NCBI GenBank assembly: GCA_037042185.1 | Contig: JAXQJY010000032.1 | Coordinates: forward strand, 248,001-312,000 | Direction of reading: 5' to 3' | From: Sordariomycetes sp. S80-01Y | Taxonomy: Eukaryota; Ascomycota; Sordariomycetes | Length of the DNA: 64,000 nucleotides | In this document: in pieces, positions 10,437-36,904 of the stretch | Position numbering within the stretch: the stretch's first letter is position 1 | Layout: each line of letters starts with the position of its first letter | Notes under the pieces: generated by a model | Databases searched by the model: none | What the model was told of the DNA's origin: nothing | The model's input: the letters and a program-made list of their open reading frames with translations, nothing else | Program-made: the position numbers and the translations under genes

Positions 10437-11051
10437 GTACCGTAAAAGGCGAAATGGGTGTCGCGGGTTTTCGAAAATAAATCTTTTTAGTGGAGTACAC
10501 TTTTTGACACCTGTGGCTGTGCACCCAGGGGCACCTCAAATGTACCGGTGCCAAATGCAATAACACAGCAAGGCCAATTCATACCCTCCCTGAATACCCC
10601 CTAGTAGTGCCAGCGCCATTCTTGGCGACTCGGATATAAGTCTTACGGACCCCAGGTGGTGGTCGGTGTTCAGACAGCAAGCTAGGCACAGGGCCATAAT
10701 GCGGCGTTAACCGTTGTTGAGTGAGAGCCTGACCACTTTAGCCCTTCACATCCTCTCACCAGCGCCTACAAACCCAGGTTCTCAGCACAACGCCTGAGAC
10801 ACGCAAGCACTGCCACTCACAATGGCACGGAATAATTAGCCAATGCAGTTTGTCATCCTTGCCTTTTACGACCGCTCGTCGAGGCGTCTGGTTGGTCGGC
10901 GATATGCACGACCACACAAGGCTGGCGCTTAGGCGCTTCTCCTCGATCTTCGACTCATGACACTTCATCGATCCCGACCACCATGGATCTCCGAACACGA
11001 ACCATCACCTAAAGTCCGCCTCGAACAAGTACGACCACCGTGCGATCGAAG
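10437..11051 (+). promoter_or_regulatory. Duplicated upstream region of STAND gene A
   Basis: About 615 bp directly upstream of gene A align almost throughout with 27421-28058 upstream of gene C, and the part near the start codon also aligns with 37228-37495 upstream of the C' fragment. By eye the match is around 90 percent. It includes a shared GGATATAAGTCTTACG stretch that could serve as a TATA-like element. This is the leader and promoter that moved together with the PNP module. Confidence 0.65.
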
Positions 11052-14000
11052 ATGCCATCCAGAAGATTAAGCCACGGTGACTATAGGGTGGGATGGATCT
11101 GTCCCTTGGAGGTGGAACAGCTCGCGGCTATGGAGATGTTGGACGCGGAACACCAACCCTTGCCGCAATCGCGAGAGGACACAAACATCTACAACCTCGG
11201 CAGCATTAACAACCACAACATCGTTATCGCCGGTCTCCCCAAGCCGGGGAACTGCTCCGCAGCCACCGTCATCAGTCAGATGAGGATAGCATTCCCGAAC
11301 CTTAAATACGGTCTGCTGGTAGGGATCGGGGGTGGTGTGCCGGTAAACACAGAGCATGGGATGATCCGACTGGGGCATGTGGTGGTTAGTGAGGCGACGG
11401 GAATACACCCTGGAACAATACAGTACGACCATGGGAAGGCGACAGCGGGCCACTTCGAACGCAAAGGGTGCCTCGCACTTCCGCCAACAGCCTTGATCAG
11501 CGCTGCGCACGAGGTAGCAGTGCGGCGTCAACGGTTGGGATATGATCCAATTTGGAAAGATGCGCAGCGCCTTCAGACTAAACCCCGCACTCGTCGCCGC
11601 TTCAAATTTCCTGGCGCTGCGAGTGATCACCTTTACCAACCTGACTATGAACATCAGGAGATGGGGTTGCCGTGTGAAGAGGCCGGGTGTGATCCGGAGC
11701 AGCGTATCATGCGAGCGATAGACGACTTTGAGGAGACTTTTGTCGTCGTCCACAGAGGGACCATAGCATCTGGGGAGCTAGTCATAAAGGATTCGAAGAT
11801 GAGGGACGATCTGGCGCGGGCGCTTGGGGCGCTATGCTTTGAGATGGAGGCAGCCGGAGCTCTTACTGACTTTCCGTGCATGGTTATCCGAGGCATCTCA
11901 GACTACTGTGACTCGCACAAGAACGACCTGTGGCATGGCTATGCTGCGGCAGTGGCAGCCGCTTATGCAAGGCAGTTATTCCTCTGCATGCCTCAAGAAG
12001 ACCCACCGAGGTGAGATGGCCCCACAGGATGCAAATTCAAGCTGTTACTGAATTACTCCAGGACCGGAAGTCTCGACGAAAATCTGCGGGCAGTCTCAGG
12101 TCTGCCGGAAATCATGACGGAGCACCGTGACATCGCGAGAGAGCAGTTGCGAGCTCAGCAGCAGCTGGCACACAAGAAGATGTCCGAAGATGAGTCAAAA
12201 TGCCATCAGTTGTTCCGCCTCACCACTAGTCAAAGGGATGCCACATATGAGTGGTACAAAGACCGAGTGGAGGAAAGAGTCGAAGGCACGTGCAATTGGT
12301 TCCTCAAGCACAAGACCTTTCAGGCGTGGCTGGGGCAGACCTCGAGTCCCCTACTCGTCTCAGCCGATCCTGGCTGTGGAAAGTCGGTACTGGCCAAGTA
12401 CTTGATTGACCGCTGCCTGCCAAGAACCGCGACTGTTTGTTACTTCTTCTTCAAGGACCAAGACCAAAATACAGTTCGACAAGCGCTCTGCGCTCTGCTA
12501 CACCAGCTCTTCCGAAAGAAACCGTCGTTGATAGAACACGCCATGCCCGAGTTTCGTGAGGATGGGCCAGGCTTGATCAACTCGACGGAATCGCTTTGGA
12601 AGATTCTGCGGAAAGCTGCTCGAGACCCTCGGGCAGGTCCTGTGGTCGTGGTCCTCGACGCTCTGGATGAATGCGCCGAATCAGAGTTTGCAAACTTAAT
12701 AAGCAACGTGGAGAGCCACTTCAGCAACCAGTCGGGCTATGGCAATTTGAAATACCTGCTTACAAGCCGGCCTTATGAACGCGTTGTGACCAAATTTCAT
12801 CGCTTATTAGAGGCTTTCCCAAATATTCGCATACCAGGAGAAGATTCATCAGAAGCTATAAGTAAGGAGGTGAGTCGGGTTGTGGCGCACCGAGTCAATC
12901 GGTTGTCGAAAGAGAAGGCGCTTGCACCACATGTCAAGAGCCACTTGGAGACGCTGCTACAGGAAACAACGCACCGCACATATCTATGGGTCTACCTTGT
13001 GTTTGATCACCTGGAGAAAGAAGGGTTCAAGAAGACCACCAGGGGTGTCTCATCGGCTATCGCAACCCTTCCCAGGAGTGTCAACGACGCTTATGAGAAA
13101 ATACTCGCCAAGTCTAAGGATGATCCGATGGTGCGCAAAGTCCTGAATATCATTGTAGCGGCGAGTCGGCCATTGACGCTGATGGAGACGAACATTGCCG
13201 TGAATTTAGATGACGGTTTGGAGTCCATTCACGACCTCGATTTGGAAAGTGCAAGGGATTTCGAGAAACGCCTTAGAAATTGGTGTGGACTATTCGTCTC
13301 GGTTCATCACGACAAGGTCTATTTCCTTCATCAAACTGCCCGCGAATTCCTGCTGAAGCGCCCGACATCAGCCGTGATTAATGGACCAGCACCCCGCTGG
13401 CATCATTCTATTGACATCAGCTGCGCACATTCTGTTCTTGCCACGATATGTGTAGCCTTTCTAGGCTTATACAGCTCTAAATCTCCCTATCGCAAGTCAT
13501 CATTCTTTACTTACTCAGCCGTCTCATGGGGTGTTCACTTGCGCGAGGCAAACTTACAAGGCCAAGCCGTTACCGTACCTCATTTATGGGAGATCTGTGA
13601 TCGGAACTCAGAGACCTTCTTGCCATGGATTACAATCTATTGGCGCACAACAGGTACCAACCTTTGGCCAATTGGTATCGAAGTTCCTCAAAATCTTACT
13701 CGCCTCATGCTAGCTTCACATTTTGGACACGTGGATCTTGTCAAGCACCTGATCCGGGATGGTGAGAACCTCGATGCACAAGACGAACGCGGCCGGACAG
13801 CTTTGTCCTGGTCCGCAATGGCAGGTTTTGAAGCAGTCGCCACTCTGTTGATCGAGCAGGGAGCCGATCTCGAGTCAAAGGATTACTGCCATCGTACGCC
13901 ACTGTCCCTCGCGGCTGAATTGGGCCGTGTATCTATGGTCAAGCTACTTAGCCAGGATAGCCGGGTTGACGTGAACTCCCAATCTGGACGTTCATATGAG

Positions 14001-15329
14001 GGTCGACGCTCCCCGCTGTCTTATGCAGCTGAGAACGGTCATGAGGCAGTTGCAGACCTACTTATCGCTCACAAGGATATCAAGATTGACCTTAAGGATT
14101 GCCGTGGCAAAACGCCATTGATGTACGCTGTAGCAGCCGCAAAAAGCTCTACTGCATACACTTTGATTCGAGGCGGCGCAAATGTCACAGAGTTTGATTT
14201 TGAGCGAAAGGGTCTCCTACACCATACTGTTATCAACGCCGAGTCTGAACTGAGTTTGGTGGAGGCTCTCATCACAGGTGGTGCAGCTACGAAATCAATC
14301 GACGCCGAGAACATGACGCCTTTGCATTACACTGTCCGACATGGCAGGACGGATATTGCTCGTGCATTATTGGCACATGGCGTACCTGTGGACATTGCTG
14401 TTCATAGAAGGACATGGCTACGTACAGTCACGGCCGAGCGACATATCTCCAAGCCTGACCCTTTGCTGCCCCAACTTGCGTTTAAGAGGGGCCTGGGACT
14501 TACTCCTCTCCACTATGCTGCGTTGGTTGGATACGAGAACATGGTGGCTTTCTTCATGCAACAAGGTGCAGATCCAAATGCCGTCTCGGCCTATGGGGAA
14601 ACCCCTTTACACCTTGCCGTCGCTAGGACCTTGAAAGGCCCGGGATACACAGATTATTGGACAGAAAGTACTTGGAGAGTTGAGGGGCTACTGGATGTTA
14701 TACAGTTGGATGACGAAGACGAGTATGCGGCAACAACTGACCAAATCCTAGACTCCCGAAAGGCTGTACTTGATACGTTACTCGGTAATTCTAGAACCGA
14801 CGTACAGGCTCTGGATTACGACGCGGAATCGGTATTGCACAAAATTCGCTACGGACATTACAGATCTTTTGAGTTAGTGCAGAAGTTACTCGAGAGAAAC
14901 GTGGTGTCATCGAGTCGCTGCTGCGACAACCAAACACCTTTACACCTGGCGTGTCGAGCAGGCGATTCATACTCAGTCTGTCTCTTAGTATCACGTACAG
15001 ATCTACCCAAAGCCGACTTCAGGGGGCGAACTGCTTTGCACCTAGCATCCTGCAGCGGATCTGTTTCAACGATAAAGGCAGTCATCGAAGCATGCGCGCT
15101 TCACAACATTGACTTATTCTCACTTAAGGACAAGCATCTCCGCAATGCACTGCATTGCTATGCTTCGTCTCTATGTTTGGACGAACAAGGTGTGCAGCTT
15201 TTACTAGACTACGGTGTCGAGCATGGTGAGACAGATGTGGATGGAAACCTTCCTCTTTCCATCTATCGTCACAGTTTATGGTGCGTTTCTGAGAATATTC
15301 TTCGGCTGTTATCTCCTAGCAGCGCCTGA
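11052..15329 (+). CDS. STAND receptor A: PNP_UDP-NACHT-ankyrin
   Basis: The model is join(11052..12010, 12062..15329), 1408 aa. The 51-bp intron (GTGAGA...CTCCAG) joins the two frames exactly. Residues 1-320 form a nucleoside-phosphorylase/nucleosidase domain, with GIGGGVPV for the phosphate or base pocket, FEMEAAG and GISDYCDSHKN. The NACHT ATPase follows, with a P-loop GCGKSVLAK near residue 427 and Walker B VVVVLDALDEC near 515. Divergent ankyrin repeats fill about 860-1400. Fungal STAND proteins act as intracellular sensors: the repeats bind a trigger, NACHT oligomerises, and the N-terminal effector is switched on. Some PNP-family effectors in immune proteins cleave ATP, so this is a possible output. 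The frame is intact. Unlike B and D its ANK repeats are diverged, which suggests an older array. Confidence 0.85.
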
Positions 15330-15795
15330 ATGGAGTCCACCACTTGTCTCGACATGGGTAACCGCATTCTCCAACCACGTCTCCGGTTCGATGATCTATC
15401 AGCTGGTTCGAGTCTGCAAATCTCTGGTGATGAATTGCTCGTGTAGTGTATGTACCGGAAGATTTTTGGCGATAGGTGCAGTGAAGATACTCCGACCTCT
15501 TTTTATCCTGAATGTAACAACGTCATCCATAGCTCGTAACATATCTGAATCTCTGATAAGTTGGTCATCGCTGTGCTCATAGATGTTGAAGTTCGAGTCC
15601 ATGCAACATGCGAAGAGCATCAGCTCGCTTGGGCATCGTCGACATGGCCCAAGCAAGTAAATCTCCCTTGGCATTACTGGAGGAAAGTCTGGCCCAAGGA
15701 TCTAGAGAACCAACCACCTCACTTCGAAGACTCAGCCGGACCTCACAAATGCATTACCATCTCTAATCAAATACCACACTTTTAACAATCCCCGG
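15330..15795. other. 3' flank of STAND A
   Basis: No separate gene is visible. Short frames on both strands have no recognisable content. Confidence 0.4.
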
Positions 15796-16395
15796 TTAAA
15801 TCAATGACACATCTTGCTGACCCCTCTGCTTCAAGCTCCGCCTCCGCATTGCTCCCACTCTTGCCAGCGCACGCCGCCTCTTTCGCTGAGGATAATCGCA
15901 TCTGCCAGCCCTCCTTGCGCGTACCGCTGGGATGGTGGCGGCAGCCCCTGTGCCTCTCGCCCCAGTCCTTGTCGGGGGGAGGTAATTGTACTCTTCGTCG
16001 GAGTCAAGGTCGTATCGCGTGCGGCATTCGCATGATACTCCTCTGCCCTTCAAGATGCAGTTGGAGCAGGCATTGTTGAACTTGTTCCGTAGCGTGACGC
16101 AACGGCCCTGGTCCTCCTCGCATGTTGTGCAGGGGTGAGGCATAACGTCGCCCCAGGCATGACAGGTAAGGGCCCTTTTCGTGTTCCTGTTGCCCCCTGT
16201 GAGCTCGCAGCAGATGTTCATCGGCACCGAGTGAGATCCAGTATACGGCCAATGAATCATCCTCTGCTCGGTGCGGGTGTCGAGGGATCCGGATTGATCC
16301 CCTTCGACGAAGAAGCCCACCTCAGTGCGGCCTGTGGCGTTTTGAAATAGGACCACAGTGAAGAACGCGTTGATACGGTGTGCGGAAAACGACAT
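15796..16395 (-). CDS. Cysteine-rich hypothetical protein, DUF3716-like
   Basis: This is an intact frame of 199 aa from the ATG at 16395. Residues around 80-125 carry a zinc-binding-like pattern: PCTTCEEDQGRC, then NACSNC and GVSCECR. That spacing resembles the fungal DUF3716 domain. The tail is rich in arginine and basic (RKRRRALARVGAMRRRS), so nuclear localisation is plausible. DUF3716 proteins are abundant in fungal accessory regions and have no assigned function. The family call is tentative. Confidence 0.5.
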   Translation of the reverse strand: MSFSAHRINAFFTVVLFQNATGRTEVGFFVEGDQSGSLDTRTEQRMIHWPYTGSHSVPMNICCELTGGNRNTKRALTCHAWGDVMPHPCTTCEEDQGRCVTLRNKFNNACSNCILKGRGVSCECRTRYDLDSDEEYNYLPPTRTGARGTGAAATIPAVRARRAGRCDYPQRKRRRALARVGAMRRRSLKQRGQQDVSLI

Positions 16396-16619
16396 GGTCG
16401 GAGACCACGGTGGTTATTGGTGAGTGAAGAAGAGAAGATGGAGAGGATGATGGTCGAAGGGGGGTGGGACCAGGTATTTCCACCTGCACCAGCAACTCTT
16501 TCCCCTCTTCCGGCACACAGCCATAGTAGCGTCACATGAGTGTCGTTTACGTGCAGAAGGAGGACACCAGCGAGCCAGCTATCGAGCCCATGACGCGTAG
16601 TTGCGCGGCGTGATCTTGT

Positions 16620-17365
16620 GGTTTCCGGCTGGCCACAAACGACAACAGACCGTGACACATTCGGACAGCTAAGAAGTCACCTCGAGAAACGCCAACCCCA
16701 TGTGGTACCGCCGTGGTGTGTTCCCCCGCATGTGAGCACTGCGAAGTCAACCGACGAGGCCATCGAGAAGCACGATGTGATCAAGCCTGGCGCCGTTTGC
16801 GTCTACACAGACGGAAGCGGCATTCATGCTCACGTTGGGGTCGCTGCAGTGGCGGCTACGCTCCAGATGGAAGGCATCAACACGACACGTGGGCCCTGAG
16901 GCCACGGCGGTCTATGCTGAGAGCAATCGTCCTCGCTCTGGTGAGTGGCTGGGCAGATGCGCCATGTTTACCGACAACCAAGCCGCCATCCAGGCGATCC
17001 GTAACCCCAAATGTCCATCGGGACAGTACATACTATCGAAGCCATCGGAAAACTGGATGAATTACGTGGCCAAGGACGGGACGTGCAGTTCCACTGGATC
17101 CCGGCTCACGTAGAAGTCCACGGCAACGAGGCAACGGATCGAGCTGCCAAGGAAGCCGCTGGAATCGACTCCGGCACAGACAACTTGAAAATCCTCATGG
17201 CGACCACTAGAACGACAATCAAGCATGGGCGCGACCTCTTCCAGCTCGGCGTGCGCCCTGCGAAGGGAGCACCAGACACCCACGTCGGAACACATAGAGC
17301 GATCAGCTCGGTGATCACGCAGATGCGCACAGCCAAGATCGGCCTGCGTGCATAACTATCGAGCA
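16620..17365 (+). mobile_element. LINE (Tad-type) fragment: RNase H and 3' tail
   Basis: Pieces of an RNase HI domain are legible in more than one frame. They are CVYTDGSGI near 16800, [20 protein letters not shown] near 16965, and [20 protein letters not shown] near 17085. This order and the spacing match the RNase H of fungal Tad1-clade non-LTR retrotransposons. No reverse transcriptase or endonuclease is present, so it is a 5'-truncated relic. At least two frameshifts separate the pieces. Confidence 0.7.
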
Positions 17366-17480
17366 TCAACAAGACGTGGACATCAAGCGCATTCTCTGTA
17401 GCTCGTCAATAGCCACAAGCAGTCAATTCCGAGCGGTTCCATCTCACGTACTCAGCACAGCAGGACATTTCTTGGCTGGG

Positions 17481-17700
17481 CTTTACTAGTAAATTTCCCT
17501 CTTGGATTTACTGGTAAACTTCTTCTTGAGACTTTACTGGTAAGGTTTTCTGCTTGCTTTTACTGGTAACTTTCTTCCTCAGAATTTACTGGTAAGTTTT
17601 TCCATTGCTTTTACTGGTAAGTTTTTCCATTGCTTTTATTGGCAAGTTTTTTCATTGCTTTTACTGGTAAAATGTGTCTTAGCTTTTACTGGTAAACAGC
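17481..17700. repeat. Minisatellite with TTTACTGGTAA cores
   Basis: Nine copies of TTTACTGGTAA (one TTTACTAGTAA and one TTTATTGGCAA) are spaced about 22-30 bp apart, joined by T-rich linkers such as GTTTTTCCATTGC. Two adjacent units (near 17590-17640) are almost identical, so the array probably grew by slippage or unequal exchange. Confidence 0.75.
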
Positions 17701-18150
17701 TCTATTTATACTATATCAAAGCTAGCTTGCCTCCGAGATATACTTGACGATGCATCAGAAAGCCTATCGCCGCTATTCCCTTCCCCGTACGTGTGACCTT
17801 GAGGACTAATATTCCGTCTCCAGCAACCTTATGAGACGCTTTGAGCTTGTGTTCTGAGCCACGAGGCTTCGCACCTGCTTCATAAAAGTTCTATCCCCAC
17901 AGGCTATCATGACATTCAGAAAGGTGTATCAGAGGATGAGAAAGAGCATACCAAGAAGCACGCTTCTGCCAGGGTATCTTGACTCTTGGCGTACCTCCCT
18001 TGCTTGGCGTATCTCCCTTGCGAAAGAGCGTATATCAAATTTGTCCTTCACCTTCCAGAACTTGTGACTATTGAAACCAGGACGATGCTCCCTAGGGGAT
18101 TCCCCAGGGTATATACACCAGACAGCTAGAAAAGTCTTTAGAGGTCAGTC
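17701..18150. other. AT-rich spacer
   Basis: It has a TATA-like stretch near 17705 and an 18-bp tandem doubling (CTTGGCGTACCTCCCTTG) near 17985-18020. No gene is recognisable. Confidence 0.4.
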
Positions 18151-19665
18151 TTAGATCATTTCTCTAATTCGGGCACCCACTTCTGTTCTCAAGTCCTGAA
18201 GATCTTTGAATTGAGTTCGAAGCCAAACCTCCTGGCTCTCATGCTCAAGCCACCATACGAGATCGACGCATCTACTCAGATCTCCCAGAATTGGCTTGTT
18301 GCTGTCGTGTATTCTCTTAGATCGCTGTCTTGCGTCGTTATCATGCTTCTTTCGCGCGGCCAGGTGGAGGGCATATGACAGAACTCCAGCTATGCCCATA
18401 CCTTTGGCAGCGAGCATCACCGTCTCGTACTCACCCAGACGGTGATTAATACCGTATGAACCCTCTATACATAAATTTTGGCCCGTTGTGACCTGCAGTA
18501 ATTGACAGCGACTGTGAGATCTCGACACTAGAAATGTAAGATGTTTCGATTTCCCCCTAGCGCATTGTTCTGGGTCGGTCCAACATGTCATCAATGGCTG
18601 ATCGTGTAGGAGGTCCAGCAAAGGAAGCCCCTGCCGTGAAAAGACGTAGAAGTAACAGCCAGGGAAGATACGAACCTCTCGGGAGCAGGAAAGCGTTAGA
18701 CGAGTTACCTTTCCGTCACTCCAATGTTTCCTTAATAACGGCACAGGCTCTTTAGCGGAGCAGGAGACGCAAGACTCTAAAAGACTAGGTCGAAAGCCAT
18801 AGGTCGCAAGCAATAAATACCTAATCTCTGGCCAGGAGCGAGCCCTTTAGGATAACGTGCCAAGTCAAGCCTAATAAGAACCTAAGGCAAAGACCAAGGT
18901 AGGAAAGCCTAGCGAGCCCCAAGAGATAGGATACAAAACGTTTAAGTATCCCTAACCCATTTTACAGTGTGGCTTTATAAGGAAAGAGCCAAATAAGCGC
19001 CTAAACCAATATAGCTAAGCTGGCACCGGAAGCCTATAGAAAGATTAGTTAATTCTATCTAAGAGGTCGTACTTACCACTCCGCCAGATATAGCCAGCGC
19101 ATCCTAGCTCGATACTCCATGGAGGTGACTGCCAGAGTGTAGTAGAGCTTCATAGACTGCGACGAAGGCAATCACTCGGTGGGCGAAGTAGTATACGTGT
19201 AGAGAGACGCCGAGGTAATCGGCCAACGGATTAATTCTGCCGCCGAGGAAAAGGGTAGCGTAGTTTGCGGCAGCAACAGTCCCGGCGCCATGTGCCAAAT
19301 GGGACTATCCCTTGAGACCAAGGATAACGAGTACGTAAGCATTTAATCCAATGAATACTACGAAGAGAAGTAGGTGAGGAGCGGGAACCCGCGGAGTAAG
19401 AGGGAGTCTTGCATACCCGAACCGCAAAGTGTACGAGCGCATAAAAGGTAAGAGGCATCGCAAGCCTCGGACAAGGAGCATGTAAAGTAACAAAATTAAG
19501 AGGATACCGCCCAAATTGACAGCATATATCAGAGAGAACATAGTGTAAGCGAGGTATCATGAGTTTCGAGGTTTCAAATGGATCTGGCGGCGCCGACGAG
19601 CCGGGTTTTGCGACCCTAGAATTGCAACCTCTGATGTACCTGTCAGGTTCGCAGATTCTACTCAC
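18151..19665 (-). pseudogene. Ferric reductase-like transmembrane oxidoreductase relic
   Basis: The upstream part (19541-19104) has hydrophobic segments, then GTVAAANYATLFLGGR and LHVYYFAHRVIAFVAVYEA. These fit the membrane haem domain of fungal ferric reductases, including the histidines of the fourth helix. A one-base shift separates them near 19300. The downstream part (18813-18151) matches the FAD/NAD module: FPGCYFYVFSRQG, IEGSYG, and MLAAKGMGIAGVLSYALHLA. The middle (about 18820-19090) is AT-rich with many stops and cannot be read as coding. The C-terminal NAD-binding end is missing. It is a decayed host gene for reductive metal uptake. Confidence 0.65.
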
Positions 19666-20102
19666 TGGATCTGGATGCGGGAAACGACATTCCGCTCCTT
19701 GATTTGTACTGATTGCTTAAGAAATCCCAGGAAGAGAGTGCAGCCAGGTAAGGTGTAGGGTGGTTGTCGTTGGCGCATAGCCACCCAATCACAACCCCCG
19801 CGCTCACTGCGCGTTTATAGAATCCAATGCGTAGGCGTCTATTGATAGCATAGACAAAGGGCTGGCGCGAAAGGCTGTCTTTACCAACCTACAAAATTCC
19901 TCATTTTCCCATCCGCCATCAAGATACCGTCTAAAACATAGCCAGATCCGCTCGATTTCGAAACATCCTCTTACCTATTGTTTTTACGCAAACCCTCGGT
20001 GGGCTATCTTCGTCAAAATCGCAATGGCGCGGCCGCAATGGAAAGCTCCAAGGACTTTGCTCGCAGCCTGAACACAAGAAGCGAAGGCTTGATGAGAAAG
20101 CA
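19666..20102. other. Intergenic spacer
   Basis: No gene is recognisable. This would be the upstream region of the next + strand frame. Confidence 0.35.
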
Positions 20103-20645
20103 ATGGAAATCACCAACCTGGGGGCTGGAGTCGCGATAGTGATTGAAGGCCGCGGAAGAACAATCCAGTTTGTCACAGACCCTGAATTCATCCCGGAATG
20201 GGAAAACACAGACAGCACACATACCGAGAATCTTCAGCCCAATGACTTCTTCCATGGGCAGGCTCCTAAGCTTCGGGCGGCGTCTAGTGCACGGAAGGAG
20301 ACCTGCACCACGTGTCAGCAGTCCCGAGGCCACAAGCGGTCGAGGCGAGCCTCAACTGTGGGGCACCTCCTAGACTCACCGCCCTCTACGCCTGATCTAA
20401 GGGACTTCGAGATTAAATACCTGAACACGCCGCCTCAATCAACGGCTGAACCTTGGGACAGTGCTTTTCGAACTTTGCTTGAGGCCTCTCCATGTCCCAC
20501 CTCGAATTCCACTCCAAATACCACTACCGAAGGCACGCCCAAAACGCCTCATCGCCGGCTATCGACGCGAGAGTCGCCCTCAACCGAATTCGACCCTTCC
20601 CCGCGGAAACGGCAGAAGATTGGCCCTACATGGTTCGATCCCTAG
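20103..20645 (+). CDS. Hypothetical low-complexity protein, 180 aa
   Basis: This is an intact frame from the ATG at 20103. The first 60 residues look folded (ITNLGAGVAIVIEGRGRTI, then FVTDPEFIPEW). The remainder is rich in S, T, P and charged residues, with a CTTCQQSRGHKRSRR basic patch and a second RKRQK near the end, which suggests a disordered nuclear protein. I do not recognise a family. It may be an exon of a longer gene. A run of 14 or so T follows at about 20688. Confidence 0.4.
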   Translation: MEITNLGAGVAIVIEGRGRTIQFVTDPEFIPEWENTDSTHTENLQPNDFFHGQAPKLRAASSARKETCTTCQQSRGHKRSRRASTVGHLLDSPPSTPDLRDFEIKYLNTPPQSTAEPWDSAFRTLLEASPCPTSNSTPNTTTEGTPKTPHRRLSTRESPSTEFDPSPRKRQKIGPTWFDP

Positions 20646-21504: not shown

Positions 21505-21803
21505 GCTTTATAAGACAATATACTAAAGCGGTTGACAGTGTGGCGCGGCGCGTGCCGCGCACTAACAGGTCCCACCCCCGAAACTGGGTACGGTGCCCGT
21601 TTGCTGCTACTAGTTCTCAGATTCTCTGGTTCGAGTTTGCCGATACCAGATCTCCGCACCTTGTTCGTGTTAAACAGAGGTAGAATCAAACGATGGTTTC
21701 AAAGAGTATAAGAGTGGTGCAACATTTTAAAAGCCATTAATTCCGCCCTTTTGTTTAGTAAACTATCCCAAGTCTTAGTCCATAAGTATCTTGCCTCCTA
21801 AAC

Positions 21804-23126
21804 ATGGCACCTAAGAATAACAAGCAACTCAAGGCCGAGTGGGTCGATGTGACAGTCGAGCAGCTCAGGGAGCGGTTATCCAACCTTGGTGTTGACTTTA
21901 GTTTAAAAGACACAAAAGGTCCCATCATCCGTATGGCTATAGAGAATGGCATTACTCTGGAGGGCTTCCCGACCAATGGCAAGCGGAAGCAGAAGAAAGG
22001 ATCTGGGGCGAAGACAGAGCCGGATGGCGACAATAGTGACGGTGAACCATGTGGGAGTCAATAACCAGAGCCGGATAGCAACAATGGAGGCCCATCTGGC
22101 CGGGGAACAGAAGAACACTCTCCTGCAGAGCAACTGCGCACTCAGAAAATGCAGAGGATCTTCACCAAGGCGGAAGTAGCCCTCCTCAATAGTCCCGATT
22201 TACACCATACCTTGCCTACTTTCCTGGGAATGGTCGCCGCAAGTATGGACGGTTGCCTCGGCCACGCCGAGAAATTAAAAACATCGAGCCCAAATTTCCC
22301 ACTCATGCGATTTTTGATCTTTACAGATGTGGTGAGAAGGAGAAGTAGCCATGATGCGAGTAATGCATTTGAGGCATTCGTTTCGGACCCGGAAAAATTC
22401 TGGGCGCTGTGGGACTGGTACAACAACGATCCGACAGAAAAGAGCCTCTATAAACAAGTGAAAGCGACCGCAGCTAGCATTGATGCTTCCCTTTGTCCTC
22501 AATCTGACGCCGAGGATAGTTCGGACAGCGAAAATGACGACAGTGACGGCGATTCCTACAGTTCGAAGGAGCGAAGGGCCATCCGCGAAAAGAACAGGGC
22601 CCCGCCCACATCACGTGCAGCTAATTACTTGACCGTCAAAGACCCGGAGACTGGCAGAGAGGTCAAAGGCGACATTTTTGGAGTTAACCCGATCCGGCGA
22701 AAGTGGCTTGGCGTGGCCCTCCCAAGCAATAACCTAAAGTTCCCTGGGCTATCGAGAGGGCTTTGGGTCAATTGCTCATCCGGGACACTTCTTGATGGGT
22801 ATCGGGACTATGTTGCTAAAGGCGCGAACCACCAAATCAGAGCAGCAGCCGACGGACAGATCTTGGAAGATTGTAAGCCGGCGCAATTTGAGCTGAATAT
22901 TGTCTTCCAAATGCCTTGGGGTAAAGCTTGGCACACGCACGGATACGGGATACCCCACTATCAACAGGACCGCGAATTTATGCTGTTCTCGAAAAGCATG
23001 CTCACTACCGCTTGGGGAACCACCGACACGTCTGACTTGCTCCATACCCACATGCAAGATGCCGGTCAGAGCATTATGACGAAGGCGGGAGAGAGGCGCA
23101 TCAAAGCTAAGGCTTGGAGAAAGTAG
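21804..23126 (+). CDS. Uncharacterised protein with SAP-like N-terminus
   Basis: Two blocks lie in the same frame: 21804-22064 (86 aa) and 22149-23126 (325 aa). A TAA at 22062 separates them. A 33-nt GT-AG segment around the stop would keep phase, but it is shorter than usual fungal introns. The N-terminus (VTVEQLRERLSNLGVDFSLK) resembles a SAP-type DNA-binding motif. The second block has an acidic stretch (SSDSENDDSDGDS), then a C-terminal region with IRRKWLGVALPSNNLKFPG and PWGKAWHTHGYGIPHYQQ. I recognise no family. A near-repeat of an AGAGCCGGAT-type sequence flanks the stop, so slippage may have created it. It may be one gene with a nonsense break or two genes. Confidence 0.45.
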
Positions 23127-23424
23127 ATAGCCCAGGTAGATTGTTATATAACATGTTTAAATGTGTCTTGGCCTATGTAGTGGATCGTCTGTGGAGATAG
23201 ACTTACCACAGATTGAAGAACCAAATGCCGAATGCCCTCAGCAGCCGAGGCATTCCGCCCACGAGCGAGATCCGTGCTGCGATTCCCTCGCTTCATAGGC
23301 GAATGCCTTAAGTTGAAATCTATATGCTAGGATACCTTCCGAAGGATTATCGGGTTCTACGTTGCGATCTTATGAAATTAAAACGTTATCAATAGCTTCA
23401 GCTACCCATTCGATTAACATGGCG

Positions 23425-24935
23425 TCACATATCATTGGCGCCCTTCTCGAGAAGTAGTTGTACTATCGCCTCGTGGCCACCCCGTGATGCCGCCTGTAGA
23501 GCGTTTCCCCATTCTCCACCTTGTGCGTTGATGTCGGCGCCCTTCTCGATAAGTAGCTGTACTGTCGCCTCGTGACCACCCCACGATGCCGCCTGTAGAG
23601 CGTTTCCGTAATTTCCACCTTGCGCGTTGACGTCGGCGCCCTTCTCGATAAGTAGCTGTACTATTGCCTCGTGATCACGATCTGATGCCGCCTGTAGAGC
23701 GTTTCCGTAAATTCCACCCTGGGCGTTGACGTCGGCGCCCTTTTCGATAAGTAGCCGCGCTATTGCTTCGTGGCCACCCCACGATGCCGCCTGTAGAGCG
23801 TTTCCATATCTTCCACCTTGTGCGTTAACATCGGCGGCCTTCTCGATAAGTAGCTGTACTATTGCCTCGTGACTACCGGCTGATGCCGCCTGTAGAGCGT
23901 TTCCGTATCTTCCACCTTGGGCGTTAACGTCGGCGTCCTTCTCGATAAGTAGCCGCGCTATTGCTTCGTGGCTATTAACTAATGCCGCCTGTAGAGCGTT
24001 TCCGTATCTTCCACCTTGGGCGTTAATGTCGGCGTCCTTCTCGATAAGTAGCCGCGCTATTGCTTCGTGGCTATTAACTAATGCCGCCTGTAGAGCGTTT
24101 CGGTAAATTCCACCTTGGGCGTTGACGTCGGCGCCCTTCTCGATAAGTAGCTGTACTGTCGCCTCGTGGCCACCCCGTGATGCCGCTTGTAGAGCGTTTC
24201 CGTAAACTCCACCTTGGGCGTTGACGTCGGCGCCCTTCTCGATAAGTAGCCGCGCTATTGCTTCGTGACCACGATCTGATGCCGCCCATAGAGCATTTCC
24301 GTATCTTCCACCTTGGGCGTTGACGTCGGCGCCCTTCTCGATAAGTAGCTGTACTATTGCCTCGTGACCACGATCTGATGCCGCCCATAGAGCGTTTCCG
24401 TATCTTCCACCTTGTGCGTTAACGTCGGCGCCCTTCTCGATAAGTAGCCGCGCTATTGCTTCGTGGCCACCCCACGATGCCGCCTGTAGAGCGTTTCGGT
24501 AATCTCCACCTTGGGCGTTGACATCGGCGCCCTTCTCGATAAGTAGCCGCGCTATTGCCTCGTGACTACTGGCTGATGCCGCCTGTAGAGCGTTTCCGTA
24601 TCTTCCGCCTTGGGCGTTGATGTCGGTGCCCTTCTCGATAAGTAGCCGCGCTATTGCTTCGTGGCCATTAACTAATGCCGCCTGTAGAGCGTTTCGGTAA
24701 ATTCCACATTGGGCGTTGACGTCGGCGCCCTTCTCGATAAGTAGCTGTACTGTCGCCTCGTGGCCACCCCGTGATGCCGCTTGTAGAGCGTTTCCGTATC
24801 TTCCACCTTGGGCGTTGACGTTGGCGTCCTTCCCGATAAGTAGCTGTACTATCGTCTCGTGGCCACCGAATGATGCCGCTTGTAGAGCATTACCGTATCT
24901 GCCACTTTGCGTATTTATATCAGCGCAGAACTCCG
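23425..24935 (-). repeat. Ankyrin-coding 99-bp tandem array in gene B
   Basis: There are fifteen units of 99 bp. The frame is NAQGG-xYGNALQAAS-xxx-HEAI-VQLLIEKGADV. Change is concentrated in the residues after GG, in the three residues after AAS (RGG, VNG, ASS, WGG, DRG, AGS, VNS, DRD) and in the VQ/AR pair. Two neighbouring units share the same DRG variant. Confidence 0.85.
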
Positions 24936-27067
24936 AAGCACATGGCTTCGGAAAACAACATTCGGACCAGCTTTTGCTGAGAAGCACAGATAGAACAGAT
25001 TCTAGTCCAAGAAGCGAAGCAAAGTAGATGGGTAACAACAGCACAGACTCACACAACGGCAGAGGCCTATTTGTAAGGTCAAACGAAGAACCGATGATCC
25101 TAATCCATGTCTCAAATGCGCCACCGTTTTGTTGAAACAGGCGCAGCGCTTGAGTTTCGACTCGACATAGACTTCTGTCTGCATCGTGATAGTGTTCGTG
25201 CCAGCTTTTCGCAGCATAGAATGCAAGTGGATACTTGGTCGGATCCCCGGTTGCAGAGAGGCCGGGATCCAGCAAATATGTGAGACAGACAGAGGCTATT
25301 TCGGCGTGAACTTCTACTCTTCTCACACTGAAGGCTGCGACCGCGTTGTGCATTCGTTCGGACTCTAGGTATTCTTGAACCGAAAAGTGTGCAATGCGGA
25401 CGGTGGCCTTGTCACGGCGGGGATCCACGTCGACTTTGATCAGCCCAGGACAAACGCGGCGAATCTCTTCCTCGTCGGGCAACCTCCCATCGGGGTTCAG
25501 TCTCGGACTATCTCCTAGTTCCACTGCAATTCCTTCAATAAGTTCCGAAACCGTCAAGGGTCTTTTGGCGTAACAAAGTAGGTTTAGAATCCGTCTTGCG
25601 TCAGGCAAAGACTCTTCGTCGATATTCAACAGCATTCGCTCATAGGTCTTGTCTAGAGACCGAGGCAAGGAAGCAAGCAATTTATCAAGTCGACGCTTGC
25701 TCCTAGGACAAGATTCCAATGCCGCGAATTGACATTCCACCCATCGGAACCTAGTCAAATTAGAGTTAATCTTTTGGACAGAAGAGGAGAACGTACACGC
25801 CTTTCGCACGCTCAGTAAGCGCAGCCTCTATCCGCTCATAGTGTTCCTCCCACTTTCGAAGCCTTCGGTTGTCCCTGAGATGTCTGGAGATAAAAGACGC
25901 AATGTCGCAGTCGACGGCATCGTTCTCCAGCGAGATTTTCTCGTGCTGTGCTGCGTCCAATTCATCGCGGATGTCAGTCTCATCGCGACTCGTGACGAGA
26001 ATGTGGAGGCCAGACTCCCGCAATGCCCGGAGATCAGTCAGAGTCTGGAGCACGGCCCCCCTGTGGCTATCTCGAGGACTTTCGTCTAACGCATCTAAGA
26101 GGATGTACACGTCGTCAAACGCCCGGACGAGCTGACGTAGGCAGTCGAAGAGGGTTTGGTTAGGTGGGGTCGCGTTGCGATAGCTCGCATGCAGGCACGC
26201 GAGCTCCTTGTGGTTGTTATTGAGCTGGCTTGACAACTGCAGAACCAGTGCGCGGAGCATTGCCGAGGTGTCTTGTTTGGAATTGTCATTGAAGGCAAAG
26301 AAGAAGAACGCAATTCCGGCACGTGGGTTGGACCTCTGATGCCGGTGGGCGTACCGTATGGCTGTAGAGAGCAGCACCGACTTGCCGCACCCGGCGAAGC
26401 CGTTGAGCCACAAAAAGGAATGGCGGTTTGCTAGCCAAGCAGAGAAGGAGGAGCCTTTAACGAACCAGAGGCCGGTACCGGGGTGCCACTTCCCGTAGGC
26501 AAGCCTATAGTATTCACCGGTTACATCTGGAGCTTTCAGCCACTCGCTGATGGTCGACGAGATCTGGTCGGCTCTAACCAGATCCACTAATGCTTTGGTA
26601 TCCTCGACGTCATCTTGAACGTAGCTGATATCCTTTGACTCCAGAAGCTGCAGTGCGAGGGATAGGTGCGAGACGATCTCATTGATGTCTTCATCGAGCT
26701 TTTGTAGCGTACTCTGTCGGAAAGGGTACGTTGCTCGGCACGCAGCTGTCCGGGCGGCGGCTGAGATGCCGGCCCTAGATTCTCCCTTGATCTTCCCAGT
26801 CTCGCCTTGTAGCTCTTCAATCCACCCTTCACAGTTCTGAATCGAGCTATGTATGCTCTCGAGCAAGGTTTGCTCGTCCGCGCGGAACTTGCGGTTCCTT
26901 AGTTGGCTGCTTAGTGCCTCGAGCACGCCAAGAAGGTGGTCCAGCTTCTTGATGGTGTATGTGACGTCGGATCTCTGAGACCTGTACGCTGAATAGAAGT
27001 TGAGGAGAGTCTGCGTGATTTGGATGCTCAGCGAAATAAAGCCAGCCGTAGCAGCGGCGACTTCCAT
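23425..27067 (-). CDS. STAND receptor B: Helo-like-NACHT-ankyrin (15 repeats)
   Basis: The model is complement(join(23425..25750, 25797..27067)), 1198 aa. The 46-bp intron (GTACGT...GACTAG, branch-like CTAATTTGAC) joins AKGV to FRWVECQ, a junction common in fungal NACHT proteins. The start MEVAAATAGFISLS is preferred over an upstream alternative because it aligns with the start of D. Residues 1-200 fit the fungal N-terminal domain of STAND proteins (Helo-like). The P-loop GFAGCGKSVL is near 226 and the Walker B YILLDALDES near 322. A winged-helix-like region follows, then about 15 ankyrin repeats of 33 aa at about 700-1198. The repeats are nearly identical. It faces gene C, with 991 bp between start codons. 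It is likely a non-self sensor acting through a membrane- or death-type N-terminal domain. Confidence 0.85.
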
Positions 27068-27420
27068 CGTGGCGTGTCGGACTATGGCGGACACGGCGCA
27101 CCCCGAAACCAATGTTAACAACCCTGCTTTGTAGGCGCAGGGGGTTCACCTTGAGAGGACAAAACGGAGAGGCCGACCGTGAATATATGTCACGACTGGA
27201 TACGCGTAAATCAACTGGACAATCATCAAATACAGCCTCGGAGTCTGCCTGGTGTTTGCCTTGCCGAAGAGGCTTGGATGGGCCGCACACCATTTTGGAC
27301 CCCGCTCCCCTGCAGTCTTTGTAGCCTCGCGGCCATCGGGCATTAATCAATTACGCACCGCAAAAGCATCGGGAATGCCTCCGTGAAGGGGCTCAGAAGA
27401 GCACCTTCCCTCGCCGTAGA
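27068..27420. promoter_or_regulatory. Upstream region of gene B
   Basis: This 353-bp stretch lies between the B start and the duplicated PNP upstream region. It is not shared with the A copy. I see no gene in it. It presumably holds the B promoter. Confidence 0.4.
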
Positions 27421-28058
27421 CAGTACCCGTAAAACGCGAAATGTGGGTGTCGCGGGTTTCCAAAATGAATCGGTTTAGTGGAGTCCACTTCTTTATACCT
27501 GTGGCTGTGCACCCAGATTCAGGGGTACCTCAAAAAGTACCGCTGCTAAATGCAATAACGCGGCAAGGCCAATTCCTATCCTCCCTGAACCCCCCTAGTA
27601 GTGCCAGCGTCATTCTTGGCGACTCGGATATAAGTCTTACAGAACCTAGGTGGTGGTCGGTGTTCGGACAGCAAGCTAGGCACAGGGCCAGAACGCGGCG
27701 TCAACCATGGCTGGTGAGAGCTGACCACTTCGGTCCTTCACATCCTCTCACCAGCGGCTGTAAACCCAGTTTCTCAGCACAACGCCTAAGACACGCAAGC
27801 ACTGCCACTCACCATGGCACGGAATAATGAACCGATGCAGTTTGTCATCCTTGGCTTTTACGACCGCTCGTCGAGGCGTCTGGTTGGTCGGCGATATGCA
27901 CGACCACACAAGGCTGGCGCTTAGGCGCTACTCCTCCTCGATCTTTAATGCTGATGCAGTTCACCTCCTCTACTCATGAAGCTTCATCGATCCTGACCAC
28001 CATGGATCTCCGAACACGAACTATCACCTAAAGTCCGCCTCGAACAAGTACGACCACC
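27421..28058 (+). promoter_or_regulatory. Duplicated upstream region of STAND gene C
   Basis: It aligns with 10437-11051 upstream of gene A through nearly its whole length, with a few small indels near the start codon (about 27945-27975). It also aligns partly, inverted, with 37228-37495. The match to A ends sharply at its left edge. Confidence 0.65.
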
Positions 28059-31000
28059 ATGCGATCGAAGATGCCGTCCAGAAGATTGAGCCACGGTGAC
28101 TACAGGGTGGGATGGATCTGTCCGTTGGAGGTGGAACAGATTGCCGCGCTGGAGATGCTGGATGAGGAGCACGAGACTCTGCCGCAATCGCGCAGCGACA
28201 CGAATATTTACAACCTCGGCAGCATCAACAACCACAATGTCGTCATCGCCGGTCTCCCCAAGGCTGGGAACTGCCCCGCCGCCACTGTTATCACCCAGAT
28301 GAAGATGACATTCCTAAACCTAAAATACGGCCTTTTGGTTGGAATTGGCGGCGGTGTGCCGGTAAAGACGGATCATGGGATGATTCGCCTCGGGCACGTG
28401 GTGGTTAGCGAACCGACAGGTATACACTCTGGAGCAGTACAATACGACCATGGAAAAGCGATAACGGGGGAGTTTGAACGCAAAGGATCCCTTGATTCTC
28501 CGCCAACAGCCCTCCTGCATGCTGCTCGAGAGGTGTCAGTACGGCGTCAGCGGATGGATTATGACCCTATTTGGAAGAACGCGCAGAGAATCGACACTAA
28601 CCATCGACATCTCCGTCGCTTTAAGTTCCCTGGCGTTACGAAGGATCATCTCTACCGGCCCGAATACGAACATCGTCAAGTAGGGGTATCATGTGAGGAT
28701 GGTGGGTGCGACCCTAAGCAGCGCATCGAGCGACCGATTAACGACGATAACACGCCCTTTGTCATTGTGCACAGAGGGACAATAGCGTCTGGGGAGCTGG
28801 TGATCAAGGATGGCAGGAAGAGGGATGACCTAGCGCGGGAGCATGGGGTGCTGTGTTTTGAGATGGAGGCAGCAGGAGCCCTAGCCGATTTCCCGTGCAT
28901 GGTTATCCGAGGCATCTCAGACTATTGCGACTCTCATAAGAACGACGTGTGGCATGGGTACGCCGCGGCCGTAGCGGCAGCATATGCGCGACAACTATTT
29001 TTTCACATGCCTATCGAGCACGAGCACGGGCACGGTGGACACGAGGGCTCCGCAGTACACTGTAGGTAGAATGTTTTGCATGGGATCTCGATTAAGACTG
29101 AAAGACGGCCAGTTCTCGTGCCATACACAAGCAACCCGAATTTTGTGGGCCGCTCCGATATCCTCGACCAGCTCAAGGATCAGCTGAGTCATGAGCAGGC
29201 GGAACCGAACAGCACAGCACAAGCTAGGACTTCTCTGTACGGACTAGGTGGTGTTGGGTACGTTTCGGTGGTATGCTAGAAGTGGCACCAGTGAAGCTAA
29301 CCTATCCCAGGAAGACTCAGATTGCGTTGGCACATGTCTACTGGCTGCATGAGACGTCTCCGGATATATCAGTTTTCTGGGTACATGCGAGCAATGCCGA
29401 ACGGTTTCGCCAATCATTCGCGACTATTGCAGAAGAATGTAGGATCCCCGGCTATACCGATCTCAAGGAGGATATTCTGCTGCTGGTAAAACGATGGCTG
29501 GAGAGCAAATATTGCGGTCGGTGGCTTATGGTCATTGACAACGCGGACGACCTGCAGCTTTTTTTCGGTCACCCGGGCGCAGTTACTACAACCACACACA
29601 CTTATGGAGAGCACCTGGGGATATATATCCCTGAATGTGCTCACGGAGCTATTCTCTGCACCACCAGAAACAAACAGGCAGGCTCTAGGATTGCCAAGGG
29701 AAAACATCCTATTAAGGTTGGCAACATGGAGGGACAGGAATCAGATCAGCTGCTTCGAGTTACACTTGAAGACGTTGGATCTTGCCCCAGTGAGCTAGCA
29801 AAGCTTGCCTCTCGCCTTGAGCACCTACCACTTGCCCTAGTCCAGGCAGCGGCCTTTATCTACGAGAATAATACGTCGGTAGGTGAATACCTTGAGCTCC
29901 TGGATAAGAGCGACCAGCACATTGTCGACTTGCTTAGCGAAGAATTCGAGACGGTCGGTAGAGACTTAGAGACTCCTCGTGCTGTCGCCGAGACATGGAT
30001 CCTCTCGTTTCAGCAGATCGAAAGGGAGAATAGTCTAGCTGGCGAGCTCCTCTCTCTTATGAGCTTACTCGACCGACAGGCGATTCCGCAGGAGTTCTTA
30101 CGCCACTATAGCGATAATACATATACAGGCGGGGTGGTGGGAGATATACAGCTCACAAAGGCCGTGGGTATCCTCAAGGCATTTTCTCTTGTCATGGGAG
30201 AGAAAGGCGGTAGCCTGGATATCCACCGCTTAGTTCAACTTGTCACTCGAAAATGGCTTTCTCGAGCGGAGAGGATCCAACGCTTTTCTAGTGCGGCACT
30301 TTTTACGGTATCACAGATGTATCCCTTCGGACGTTACGAGACCCGGACGACATGCAGAGCTTACCTCCCGCATGGCTATGCCGTCTTAAAGTTACAAGGC
30401 GCCGAGTTTAGGGAAGAAGTATTAGCGAAAGCATCTCTCTTAAGCTGCATCAGTGGATATTTTTATTTTGAGGGTGCATGGAACGATGCGCAACGACTAG
30501 AGGAGGAATGCGTGGGTATTCGGAAACGACTACTGGGAGTAGAACATCCCGAGACACTCTCAAGTATAGCCAACCTAGCGTCGACGTATAGGAATCAGGG
30601 CCAGTGGGAAGAGGCAGAGAAGCTATTTATGCAGGTGATGGAGACGAGCAAGGCCAAGCTTGGGGCGGATCATCTCGATACGCTGATGAGCATTGGTAAT
30701 CTGGCGTCGACGTATTGGCATCAGGGTCGGTGGGAGGAGGCAGAGAAGCTTGAGGTGCAGGTGATGGAGACTCACAAGGCCAAGCTTGGGGCGGATCATC
30801 CCGATACGCTGATCAGCATGGCCAACCTGGCGTCGACGTATAGGAATCAGGGCCGGTGGGAGGAGGCAGAGAAGCTTGAGGTGCAGGTGATGGAGACTCA
30901 CAAGGCCAAGCTTGGGGCGGATCATCCCGATACGCTGATCAGCATGGCCAACCTGGCGTCGACGTATAGGAATCAGGGCAGGTGGGAGGAGGCAGAGAAG

Positions 31001-31744
31001 CTTGAGGTGCAGGTGATGGAGACGAGCAAGGCCAAGCTTGGGGCGGATCATCCCGATACGCTGATAAGCATGGCCAACCTGGCGTCGACGTATAGGAATC
31101 AGGGCCGGTGGGAGGAGGCAGAGAAGCTTGAGGTGCAGGTGATAGAGACTCGCAAGATTAAGCTTGGGACGGATCATCCCGATACGCTGATCAGCATGGG
31201 CAACCTGGCGTCGACGTATTGGAATCAGGGCCGGTGGGAGGAGGCAGAGAAGCTATTCATGCAGGTGATAGAGACGAGCAAGGCCAAGCTTGGGGCGGAT
31301 CATCCCGATACGCTAAACAGCATGGCCAACCTGGCGTCGACGTATTGGAATCAGGGCCGGTGGGAGGAGGCAGAGAAGCTTCAGGTGCAGGTGATGGAGA
31401 CTCGCAAGGCCAAGCTTGGGGCGGATTATCCCGATACGCTGATGAGCACGGGCAACCTGGCGTCGACGTATTTGAATCAGGGCCGGCGGGAGGAGGCAGA
31501 GAAGCTCGAGGTACAGGTGATGGAGACTCGCAAGGTTAAGCTTGGGGCGGATCATCCCGATACGCTGATCAGCATGAACAATCTCGCGCATACTTGGAAG
31601 TCTATGGGGAAGAGCTCAGAGGCTACTGATTTGATGCGTACATGCATTCGCCTCCAGCAGCTACGGCTAGGGTTGAATCATCCGTCCACACAGTCCTCAG
31701 TTTTTACTTTAAACCAATGGCAGTCGGGGAGGGATATATTATAA
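28059..31744 (+). CDS. STAND receptor C: PNP_UDP-NB-ARC-TPR
   Basis: A working model is join(28059..29054, 29097..29257, 29311..31744), 1196 aa. The 53-bp intron is clear and rebuilds the P-loop GLGGVGKTQIA. The first junction is uncertain: an in-frame TAG at 29067 needs the 42-nt GT-AG segment to be spliced, otherwise the gene is split. Residues 1-330 are a PNP/nucleosidase domain about 80 percent like that of A, with GIGGGVPV, FEMEAAG and GISDYCDSHKN. NB-ARC follows, with Walker B WLMVIDNADD near 456. Nine 42-residue TPR units of kinesin-light-chain type (HPDTLISMANLASTYRNQGR) fill about 797-1170. PNP is the probable effector, the TPRs the sensor. It starts head-to-head with gene B. Confidence 0.75.
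30541..31660 (+). repeat. TPR-coding 126-bp tandem array in gene C
   Basis: There are eight units of 126 bp that are almost identical and one diverged last unit. Variation falls at RNQ/WNQ/WHQ/LNQ, at EVQ/FMQ/QVQ, and at HKAK/SKAK/RKIK/RKVK. The identity implies recent copy-number change. Confidence 0.85.
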
Positions 31745-36830: not shown

Positions 36831-36904
36831 TCTCAAAGTGCATTGTCGCTATGCTATAATCAAGCACCTCATCTAACATCATTAACCTTATGGTCATGAT
36901 CATA

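What the first reader, a model, noticed from the sequence alone, without database searches (positions are those of the whole stretch)
10437..31744. One leader-plus-PNP module joined to two different receptor cores
Genes A and C share about 615 bp of upstream DNA and the whole PNP domain, and the likeness stops just after the PNP domain (about 12000 and 29000). After that A has NACHT-ANK and C has NB-ARC-TPR. An effector with its own promoter appears to have been transferred as a unit onto unrelated sensor cores. Module swapping in fungal STAND proteins is known, but a case with promoter and effector moving together in one 20-kb region is striking.
Basis: partly seen in the sequence, partly recalled or inferred. 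Interest (0 to 1): 0.85.

Follow-up and report, generated by a model that had tools for sequence, protein, structure and literature searches.

The report
Fungal immune gene with overwritten promoter
Two neighbouring fungal immune-receptor genes with unrelated sensor parts carry the same kind of effector domain and nearly the same promoter DNA, but the promoter copy looks far younger than the shared domain, so it was probably pasted over later rather than moved together with it.

Summary
In detail: genes A (11052-15329) and C (28071-31744) share DNA from 10437/27427 through the PNP domain to about 11993/29012; then A has a NACHT-ANK core and C an NB-ARC-TPR core. "Leader and effector moved as one unit" fails on age: PNP third codon positions differ by K=0.69, the leader by 0.093. 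In two control pairs, C-D and B-B', leader and third positions diverge at similar rates. A relic, D (36880-37496), gives direction: in the PNP body C pairs with D (42 against 15 sites), in the leader with A (31 against 4; Fisher 6e-9). Best reading: A's promoter, 5'UTR and first ~20 codons were overwritten from the C lineage by ectopic gene conversion after C and D split, on top of an older PNP swap. The swap is real: of 120 listed kin of each core, 102 (A) and 25 (C) have a long PNP, only 36-46% and 30-41% like A's and C's. Against: AU tests do not reject A and C as sister PNPs, and no other strain could be read. N-terminal swapping in fungal NLRs is known; the later promoter overwrite is the new part.

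The parts
10437..11051 (+). Leader of A (promoter, 5'UTR); youngest segment shared with C, 90-94% identical
10437..11120 (+). Inferred conversion tract in A (leader plus first ~20 codons); right edge by change-point 11121 (11104-11126)
   Evidence: 57 of 677 sites differ before, 212 of 870 after, lnL gain 36; one search suggests the edge may be gradual
11052..12010 (+). Gene A exon 1, PNP domain; A-C homology ends at about 11993
12011..12061 (+). Gene A intron 1 (51 nt, GTGAGA...CAG), just after the break point
   Evidence: model only
12062..15329 (+). Gene A core: NACHT-like (NPHP3_N) and ankyrin repeats; no DNA copy of 12062-14000 found elsewhere in the genome
23425..27067 (-). Gene B: N-terminal domain, NACHT, ankyrin array; start codon at 27067, intron(s) near 25.8 kb not resolved
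26652..27442 (-). B leader plus first ~138 codons, duplicated as an orphan at contig C15:107664-108477 (88.7%)
27422..27442 (.). Junction where B-B' homology ends and A-C leader homology begins (AGTACCCGTAAAA shared by C and B')
27427..28070 (+). Leader of C, inferred donor
28071..29061 (+). Gene C exon 1, PNP domain; homology to A ends at about 29012
29113..31744 (+). Gene C core: NB-ARC (exons 29113-29257 and 29311 on; intron 29258-29310 splits the P-loop) and TPR array 30569-31576 (126-bp unit x 8)
36880..37496 (-). D: relic of leader plus part of PNP, nearest to C in the PNP body; frame broken, no core seen after it

Best explanation
A and C are two open-framed fungal NLR-type receptors whose PNP effector domains belong to one promiscuous PNP lineage that has been joined to many cores. 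On top of that older N-terminal swap, A's leader and first ~20 codons were later replaced by a copy of C's through ectopic gene conversion (or one-sided break repair) between the two direct-repeat genes 17 kb apart. The event was anchored in the homologous PNP start, ran upstream through the leader and ended where C's leader meets gene B's leader. Shown: the break points, the two ages, the switch of nearest relative between leader and body. Inferred: conversion as the process, C to A as the direction, and that the copied DNA drives A. By family, both genes should work as sensors whose NACHT or NB-ARC core assembles on recognition and whose PNP then destroys a nucleotide pool and kills or arrests the cell; with the overwrite, two receptors with different sensors would now be switched on by the same promoter.
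For: Leader K=0.093 (53 of 608 sites, 95% 0.069-0.119) against third-position K=0.69 (127 of 282, 0.55-0.86) for A-C; fourfold sites 54 of 109 against leader 53 of 608, Fisher 6e-22. Controls: C-D leader 0.283 (50 of 212) and third positions 0.226 (15 of 77); B-B' 0.091 (32 of 373) and 0.126 (16 of 138), so leaders here diverge about as fast as third positions. Three-way columns: leader AC|D 31, CD|A 4, AD|C 8 of 185; body 11121-11362 AC|D 15, CD|A 42, AD|C 4 of 234; Fisher 6e-9. Direction: A-D leader K=0.218 although A-D third positions are 0.84, so A's leader sits inside the C/D lineage. Equal constraint on all leaders is disfavoured: A-only to C-only changes are 4:8 in the leader and 42:4 in the body, p=9e-5. 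Older swap: of 120 listed kin of A's core, 102 have at least 200 aa of PNP, 36-46% like A's; of 120 of C's core, 25 have such a PNP at 30-41% and 90 none, while the PNP nearest to C's (P0027, 87%) sits on another core. Ka/Ks about 0.12 for A-C, so both PNPs look under purifying selection.
Against: D is a relic, gives only 185 leader columns and may have drifted without constraint. The distal leader (10437-10861) has no third copy, so direction is shown only for the proximal part. Third positions of codons 1-70 are also less diverged (21 of 70) than the rest (116 of 245), so the right edge may be gradual or reflect more than one event. The AU tests do not reject A+C as sister PNPs (p 0.662, 0.199) nor A inside C's group (0.224), and the constrained tree scored better than the free quick search. 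The closest relative of A's core (P0121, 95%) begins inside the core, so it cannot say which PNP it had. No second strain or species could be read at DNA level.
Confidence: 0.72

Rival explanations
1. One reading: leader and PNP were moved together as a unit from one gene to the other, and the PNP then diverged faster than the leader.
For: Leader and PNP are contiguous in A, C and partly D; orphan leader-plus-N-terminus copies exist (D; B' at C15:107664-108477), so 5' ends are copied as blocks here.
Against: The excess divergence is at third positions, mostly synonymous (K 0.69 against 0.093), which protein selection does not explain; 94 of 227 A-C differences in exon 1 are transversions, unlike RIP. 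The switch of nearest relative is not expected.
Confidence: 0.08
2. The reverse order: A received C's leader plus PNP recently, and its PNP body from codon ~20 on was then replaced by a divergent PNP of the same lineage, by conversion or introgression.
For: It gives the same mosaic and the same numbers. A degenerate PNP piece with stops on C3:403707-404065 (57% over 76 aa to A; 70% DNA over 322 bp) shows that other copies of related PNPs once existed.
Against: It needs a second intact PNP donor; apart from C and the relic D, the best full-length PNP match in the genome is 46% (short pieces reach 57% and 52%).
Confidence: 0.12
3. No exchange: A and C inherited leader and PNP from an old duplication, and 600 bp of leader are held at 90% by strong constraint.
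For: A release of constraint in the relic D would also give many D-only changes in the leader; one run of 75 identical bases is longer than most random placements (fraction 0.035).
Against: Differences in the leader are spread much as by chance (dispersion 1.2, fraction 0.17); A-only to C-only changes 4:8 against 42:4 in the body; the B-B' leader diverges about like third positions.
Confidence: 0.08

Closest known systems
N-terminal domain swapping in fungal NLRs (Dyrka et al. 2014, PMC4986451; section 12 read, passages elsewhere)
   Same: Very similar NOD cores with different N-terminal domains, PNP_UDP among them; trees of N-terminal domains and NODs do not agree; read there as domain fusions and swaps.
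   Different: Protein-level pairs. The term 'promoter' has no occurrence in the main text held. Here the N-terminal domain is the shared part, the cores differ, and the DNA shows a second, younger layer in the leader.
NLR clusters of Sordariales (Bonometti et al. 2025, PMC12258605; abstract and passages seen)
   Same: PNP_UDP_1 is found about equally with T-NACHT (170) and NB-ARC (145); [quoted passage not shown]
   Different: In the passages seen it is a proposal, favoured by the C-terminal repeats; here a specific 5' tract between receptors with unrelated cores is dated and given a direction.
PNP effectors of fungal NLRs and amyloid-linked PNP (Wojciechowski et al. 2022, PMC9815663; passages seen)
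   Same: PNP_UDP as an N-terminal or neighbouring effector of NLRs.
   Different: A and C carry PNP in cis; the PUASM amyloid pattern was sought only in 8 loci at 4 other PNP/NB-ARC places, without regard to introns, and not found.
Repeat exchange between members of the WD-repeat STAND family of Podospora (described in PMC4986451, passages; original papers not read)
   Same: Concerted evolution between paralogous STAND genes.
   Different: There the C-terminal repeats are exchanged; here the promoter end.

Membership tests
Fungal NLR (STAND) receptor, PNP-NACHT-ANK (gene A) | N-terminal PNP_UDP_1, NACHT-type NTPase, ankyrin repeats in one open frame | tested here: met
   PNP 4.2e-8, NPHP3_N 1.8e-40, Ank_2 7e-60; PF05729 itself not hit in A at 0.001
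Fungal NLR (STAND) receptor, PNP-NB-ARC-TPR (gene C) | N-terminal PNP_UDP_1, NB-ARC, TPR repeats in one open frame | tested here: met
   PNP 1.6e-7, TPR_10 1.5e-128; NB-ARC by P-loop and relatives, not by a direct Pfam hit
Fungal NLR (both) | Ligand-triggered oligomerisation and cell death | not testable with these tools
   No assay; inferred from family
N-terminal domain swap | Core's closest kin carry a different N-terminal domain | tested here: met
   A core 102 of 120 with PNP at 36-46%, 14 none, 4 short pieces (43-64% over 47-141 aa); C core 25 of 120 with PNP at 30-41%, 90 none, 5 short pieces (42-50% over 66-116 aa). Nearest exceptions: P0120 (PNP 61%, core 56% to A) and three Clonostachys proteins (PNP 69-71%, core 50-51% to C)
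Joint promoter-plus-effector transfer | Leader and effector body of the same age and same nearest relative | tested here: not met
   K 0.093 against 0.69; AC|D 31 against 4 in leader, CD|A 42 against 15 in body
Ectopic gene conversion tract | Local rise of identity with a change of nearest relative, against controls | tested here: met
Ectopic gene conversion tract | Presence or absence of the tract among strains or sister species | not testable with these tools
   The whole-genome tool says this genome has no relatives there; only own-genome DNA searches ran
Active promoter shared by A and C | Transcription start in the leader, joint regulation | not tested
   No RNA data

The most novel reading that the evidence does not exclude
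In this NLR-rich, repeat-rich part of contig C15 the 5' ends of receptor genes (leader plus N-terminal effector) are copied as blocks, leaving orphans (D, B') and overwriting the promoters of receptors with other sensors (A). Promoter homogenisation across unrelated sensors would be a distinct layer of fungal NLR evolution that keeps sensors under one expression programme while their cores change.
Probability: 0.3. Interest if true: 0.7.

Novelty: new variant of a known kind. Interest (0 to 1): 0.52.

Why it matters
Combinatorial swapping in fungal immune receptors has been inferred from proteins, and gene conversion in NLR clusters has been proposed. This locus gives a worked case at DNA level: a relic that sets the direction, two control pairs that set the local rate, and a break point at the end of the effector domain. 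It also shows that a shared promoter need not date from the domain swap, so 5' likeness between receptors cannot be read as joint transfer without dating both parts. If common, it would explain how new sensor-effector pairs acquire working expression.

Tried and rejected
Leader as a dispersed repeat or transposon: rejected, only A, C and D matched in 30.9 Mb. RIP as the source of PNP divergence: rejected, 94 of 227 A-C differences in exon 1 are transversions. The shared AGTACCCGTAAAA at the junctions as a special motif: rejected, matches with up to one mismatch are fewer than for the reversed control (52 against 176). A second conversion at the PNP 3' end: not seen, synonymous sites of codons 271-315 are saturated. 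Viral contigs holding PNP relatives: 6 stretches matched a pattern, none confirmed. Rfam at gathering score: no match in the window. Gene E's 5' end as a further duplicated block: no copy, so block copying is seen for the A/C/D and B/B' ends, not for E. B-C and E-D as one duplicated head-to-head pair: B and E are 52-53% at protein level although C and D are close, so not of one age. Literature: searched the held library; judged by titles and abstract starts, none of the papers listed reports a promoter overwrite between fungal NLR genes. Searches listed only 12 of 758 and 10 of 573 papers; subscription papers are mostly not held.
Full report
What is there. Gene A (11052-12010, 12062-15329, plus strand) encodes PNP-NACHT-ankyrin; gene C (28071-29061, 29113-29257, 29311-31744, plus strand) encodes PNP-NB-ARC-TPR. 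Their DNA is alike from 10437/27427 to about 11993/29012 and the likeness does not go on at either side. A third partial copy, D, lies at 36880-37496 on the minus strand; its frame is broken and no core was seen after it. In the whole genome the leader matched only A, C and D. In PNP protein C is 78% identical to A; besides D's pieces (79% over 56 aa, 69% over 51 aa) the best of the other matches over most of the domain is 46%, and short ones reach 57% (76 aa, with stops, C3:403707) and 52% (81 aa) among 35 matches.

Break point. In A the likeness ends 17 bases before the donor of intron 1 (12011-12061); in C 49 bases before the donor of intron 1 (29062-29112). The break is thus in the last codons of exon 1, at the end of the PNP domain, not in an intron. 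After it A matches its own core family from the linker on (GLPEIMTEHRDIAREQL against the DLHEVAEEHRDIAKEHL of P0123) and C matches the linker FLVPYTSNPxFVGRS of its core family (P0242). A Fusarium protein, P0027, with a PNP 87% like C's, carries the same linker and then a different, NACHT-annotated core, so cores have also been exchanged behind this PNP.

The PNP swap is real. The 120 listed relatives of A's NACHT core (55.6-95.4% identity) include 102 with at least 200 aa of PNP, all 36-46% identical to A's PNP, 14 with no PNP hit and 4 with short pieces (P0133 45% over 141 aa, P0145 43% over 138, P0165 51% over 112, P0201 64% over 47). The 120 listed relatives of C's NB-ARC core (55-70%) include 25 with such a PNP at 30-41%, 90 with none and 5 with short pieces at 42-50% over 66-116 aa; other records carry N-terminal domains such as PF12697 (alpha/beta hydrolase, name recalled), PNPLA, DUF676 or PF06985 (HET, name recalled). 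Conversely the 120 listed relatives of A's PNP (43-78%) sit mostly on other cores: 79 have at least 250 aa alignable to C's NB-ARC, 76 of them under 45% and three (Clonostachys P0037, P0042, P0058) at 50-51%; 19 have at least 250 aa alignable to A's NACHT, 18 of them at 21-31% and one, P0120 (Metarhizium), at 56% with a PNP 61% like A's; P0118 (PNP 63%, core 48%) is next. In each search only the best 120 of 2541, 3378 and 3158 hits were listed and examined, and searches scored only the candidates sharing most words.

Two ages. Between A and C the leader differs at 53 of 608 sites (K=0.093, 95% 0.069-0.119); third positions of codons 24-305 differ at 127 of 282 (K=0.69, 0.55-0.86). Exon 1 to codon 315 has Ks 1.13 and Ka 0.14. 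A change-point sits at 11121 (11104-11126), about 23 codons into the gene, but third positions of codons 1-70 are less diverged (21 of 70) than later ones (116 of 245), so the edge may be gradual. Two pairs serve as controls for the local relation between leader and third positions: C-D 0.283 (50 of 212) and 0.226 (15 of 77), B-B' 0.091 (32 of 373) and 0.126 (16 of 138). Only A-C is out of line, about sevenfold.

Direction. In 185 leader columns held by all three, A and C agree against D at 31, C and D against A at 4, A and D against C at 8. In 234 body columns (11121-11362) the counts are 15, 42 and 4 (Fisher for the first two, 6e-9). The body pairs C with D; the leader pairs A with C. A-D leader distance is 0.218 although A-D third positions are at 0.84; had C taken A's leader, A-D should be as distant in the leader as in the body. 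So A's leader most likely came from the C/D side after C and D split. A shared constraint does not explain it: under constraint A-only changes should still outnumber C-only ones as in the body (42:4), but they are 4:8 (p=9e-5). D's own many changes in the leader could reflect loss of function, and the distal leader lacks D; both limit the argument.

Trees. A 97-row quick PNP tree placed C with Beauveria-type proteins and A loosely in a mainly Penicillium group, but the best tree holding A and C together scored higher than the free one (p 0.662). A careful 48-row tree without the first 23 residues again puts C in a supported group (99/97) without A; A joins P0052 with weak support (85/82), both on long branches. 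AU does not reject A+C (p 0.199) nor A within C's group (p 0.224). The PNP tree therefore neither shows nor excludes a direct A-C duplication; the third-position distance says it would be old.

Neighbourhood. Gene B is head to head with C. Its leader and first ~138 codons recur as an orphan at C15:107664-108477 (88.7%); no B-like NACHT or ankyrin part was found after it in the 9-kb stretch read. The B-B' likeness ends at 27442, within about 15 bp of where A-C likeness begins, so C's leader has a clear outer edge. Orphan 5' blocks (D, B') near an overwritten 5' end (A) suggest that 5' ends are copied here, but gene E's 5' end has no copy. Of the 35 PNP matches (exon pieces, not genes) 13 lie within C15:173-600 kb, where a ~195-bp repeat is also dense (28 of 46 matches on C15, all between 31 and 602 kb; counts are lower bounds).

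How it probably works. Recognition by the ankyrin or TPR end, assembly by NACHT or NB-ARC, and nucleotide destruction by PNP is the family expectation; [quoted passage not shown] The nearest solved sequences are MTA/SAH nucleosidases (best 6.6e-5, residues 227-301 of C's 330). None of this was tested. The conversion would place A under C's promoter; whether A and C are in fact co-expressed is unknown.

What is known. Swapped N-terminal domains and incongruent trees in fungal NLRs were reported in 2014 (PMC4986451, section 12); PNP with both NACHT and NB-ARC, and clusters as a possible site of gene conversion, in 2025 (PMC12258605, passages). A dated overwrite of a promoter between receptors with unrelated cores did not appear among the papers listed; one search listed none.

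Noticed in passing
36880-37496 (minus): Relic D: leader plus part of the PNP with broken frame and no core seen; head to head with the NACHT-ankyrin gene E (frames within 37633-42635).
   Followed up: yes
26652-27442 and C15:107664-108477 (L075): Leader and N-terminal domain of gene B recur about 140 kb before the window's start as an orphan block that ends soon after codon 134; a copy of the ~195-bp repeat lies 60 bp beyond its end (C15:108538).
   Followed up: partly
C3:403707-404065 (L033): Another degenerate PNP piece with stops, 57% over 76 aa to A and about 70% in DNA to A and C: a further relic of this or a near PNP lineage.
   Followed up: no
2328-2522, 7861-7965, 44148-44342, 49084-49186, 59035-59233: A ~195-bp repeat (two copies are the last ~100 bp only); 46 matches genome-wide, 28 of them on C15 within 31-602 kb; no Rfam match in the window.
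   Followed up: partly
23437-24909, 30569-31576, 39861-42580: Highly alike coding repeats: ankyrin 99-bp x 14.9, TPR 126-bp x 8, ankyrin 99-bp x 27.7 (86, 90 and 82% matches), as described for fungal NLRs.
   Followed up: no
C14:903588-905947 (L063/L038), C13:363579-365926 (L064/L041), C15:171643-173630 (L066/L032), C15:590951-593290 (L068/L026): Four places where a PNP frame (+) and an NB-ARC frame (-) lie head to head, three of them alike at DNA level; the C15:171643 NB-ARC match holds 12 stops. Possibly paired PNP effector and NLR units.
   Followed up: partly
10983-11012 and 28002-28031: A short upstream reading frame (MDLRTRTIT, stop) in the leaders of both A and C.
   Followed up: no
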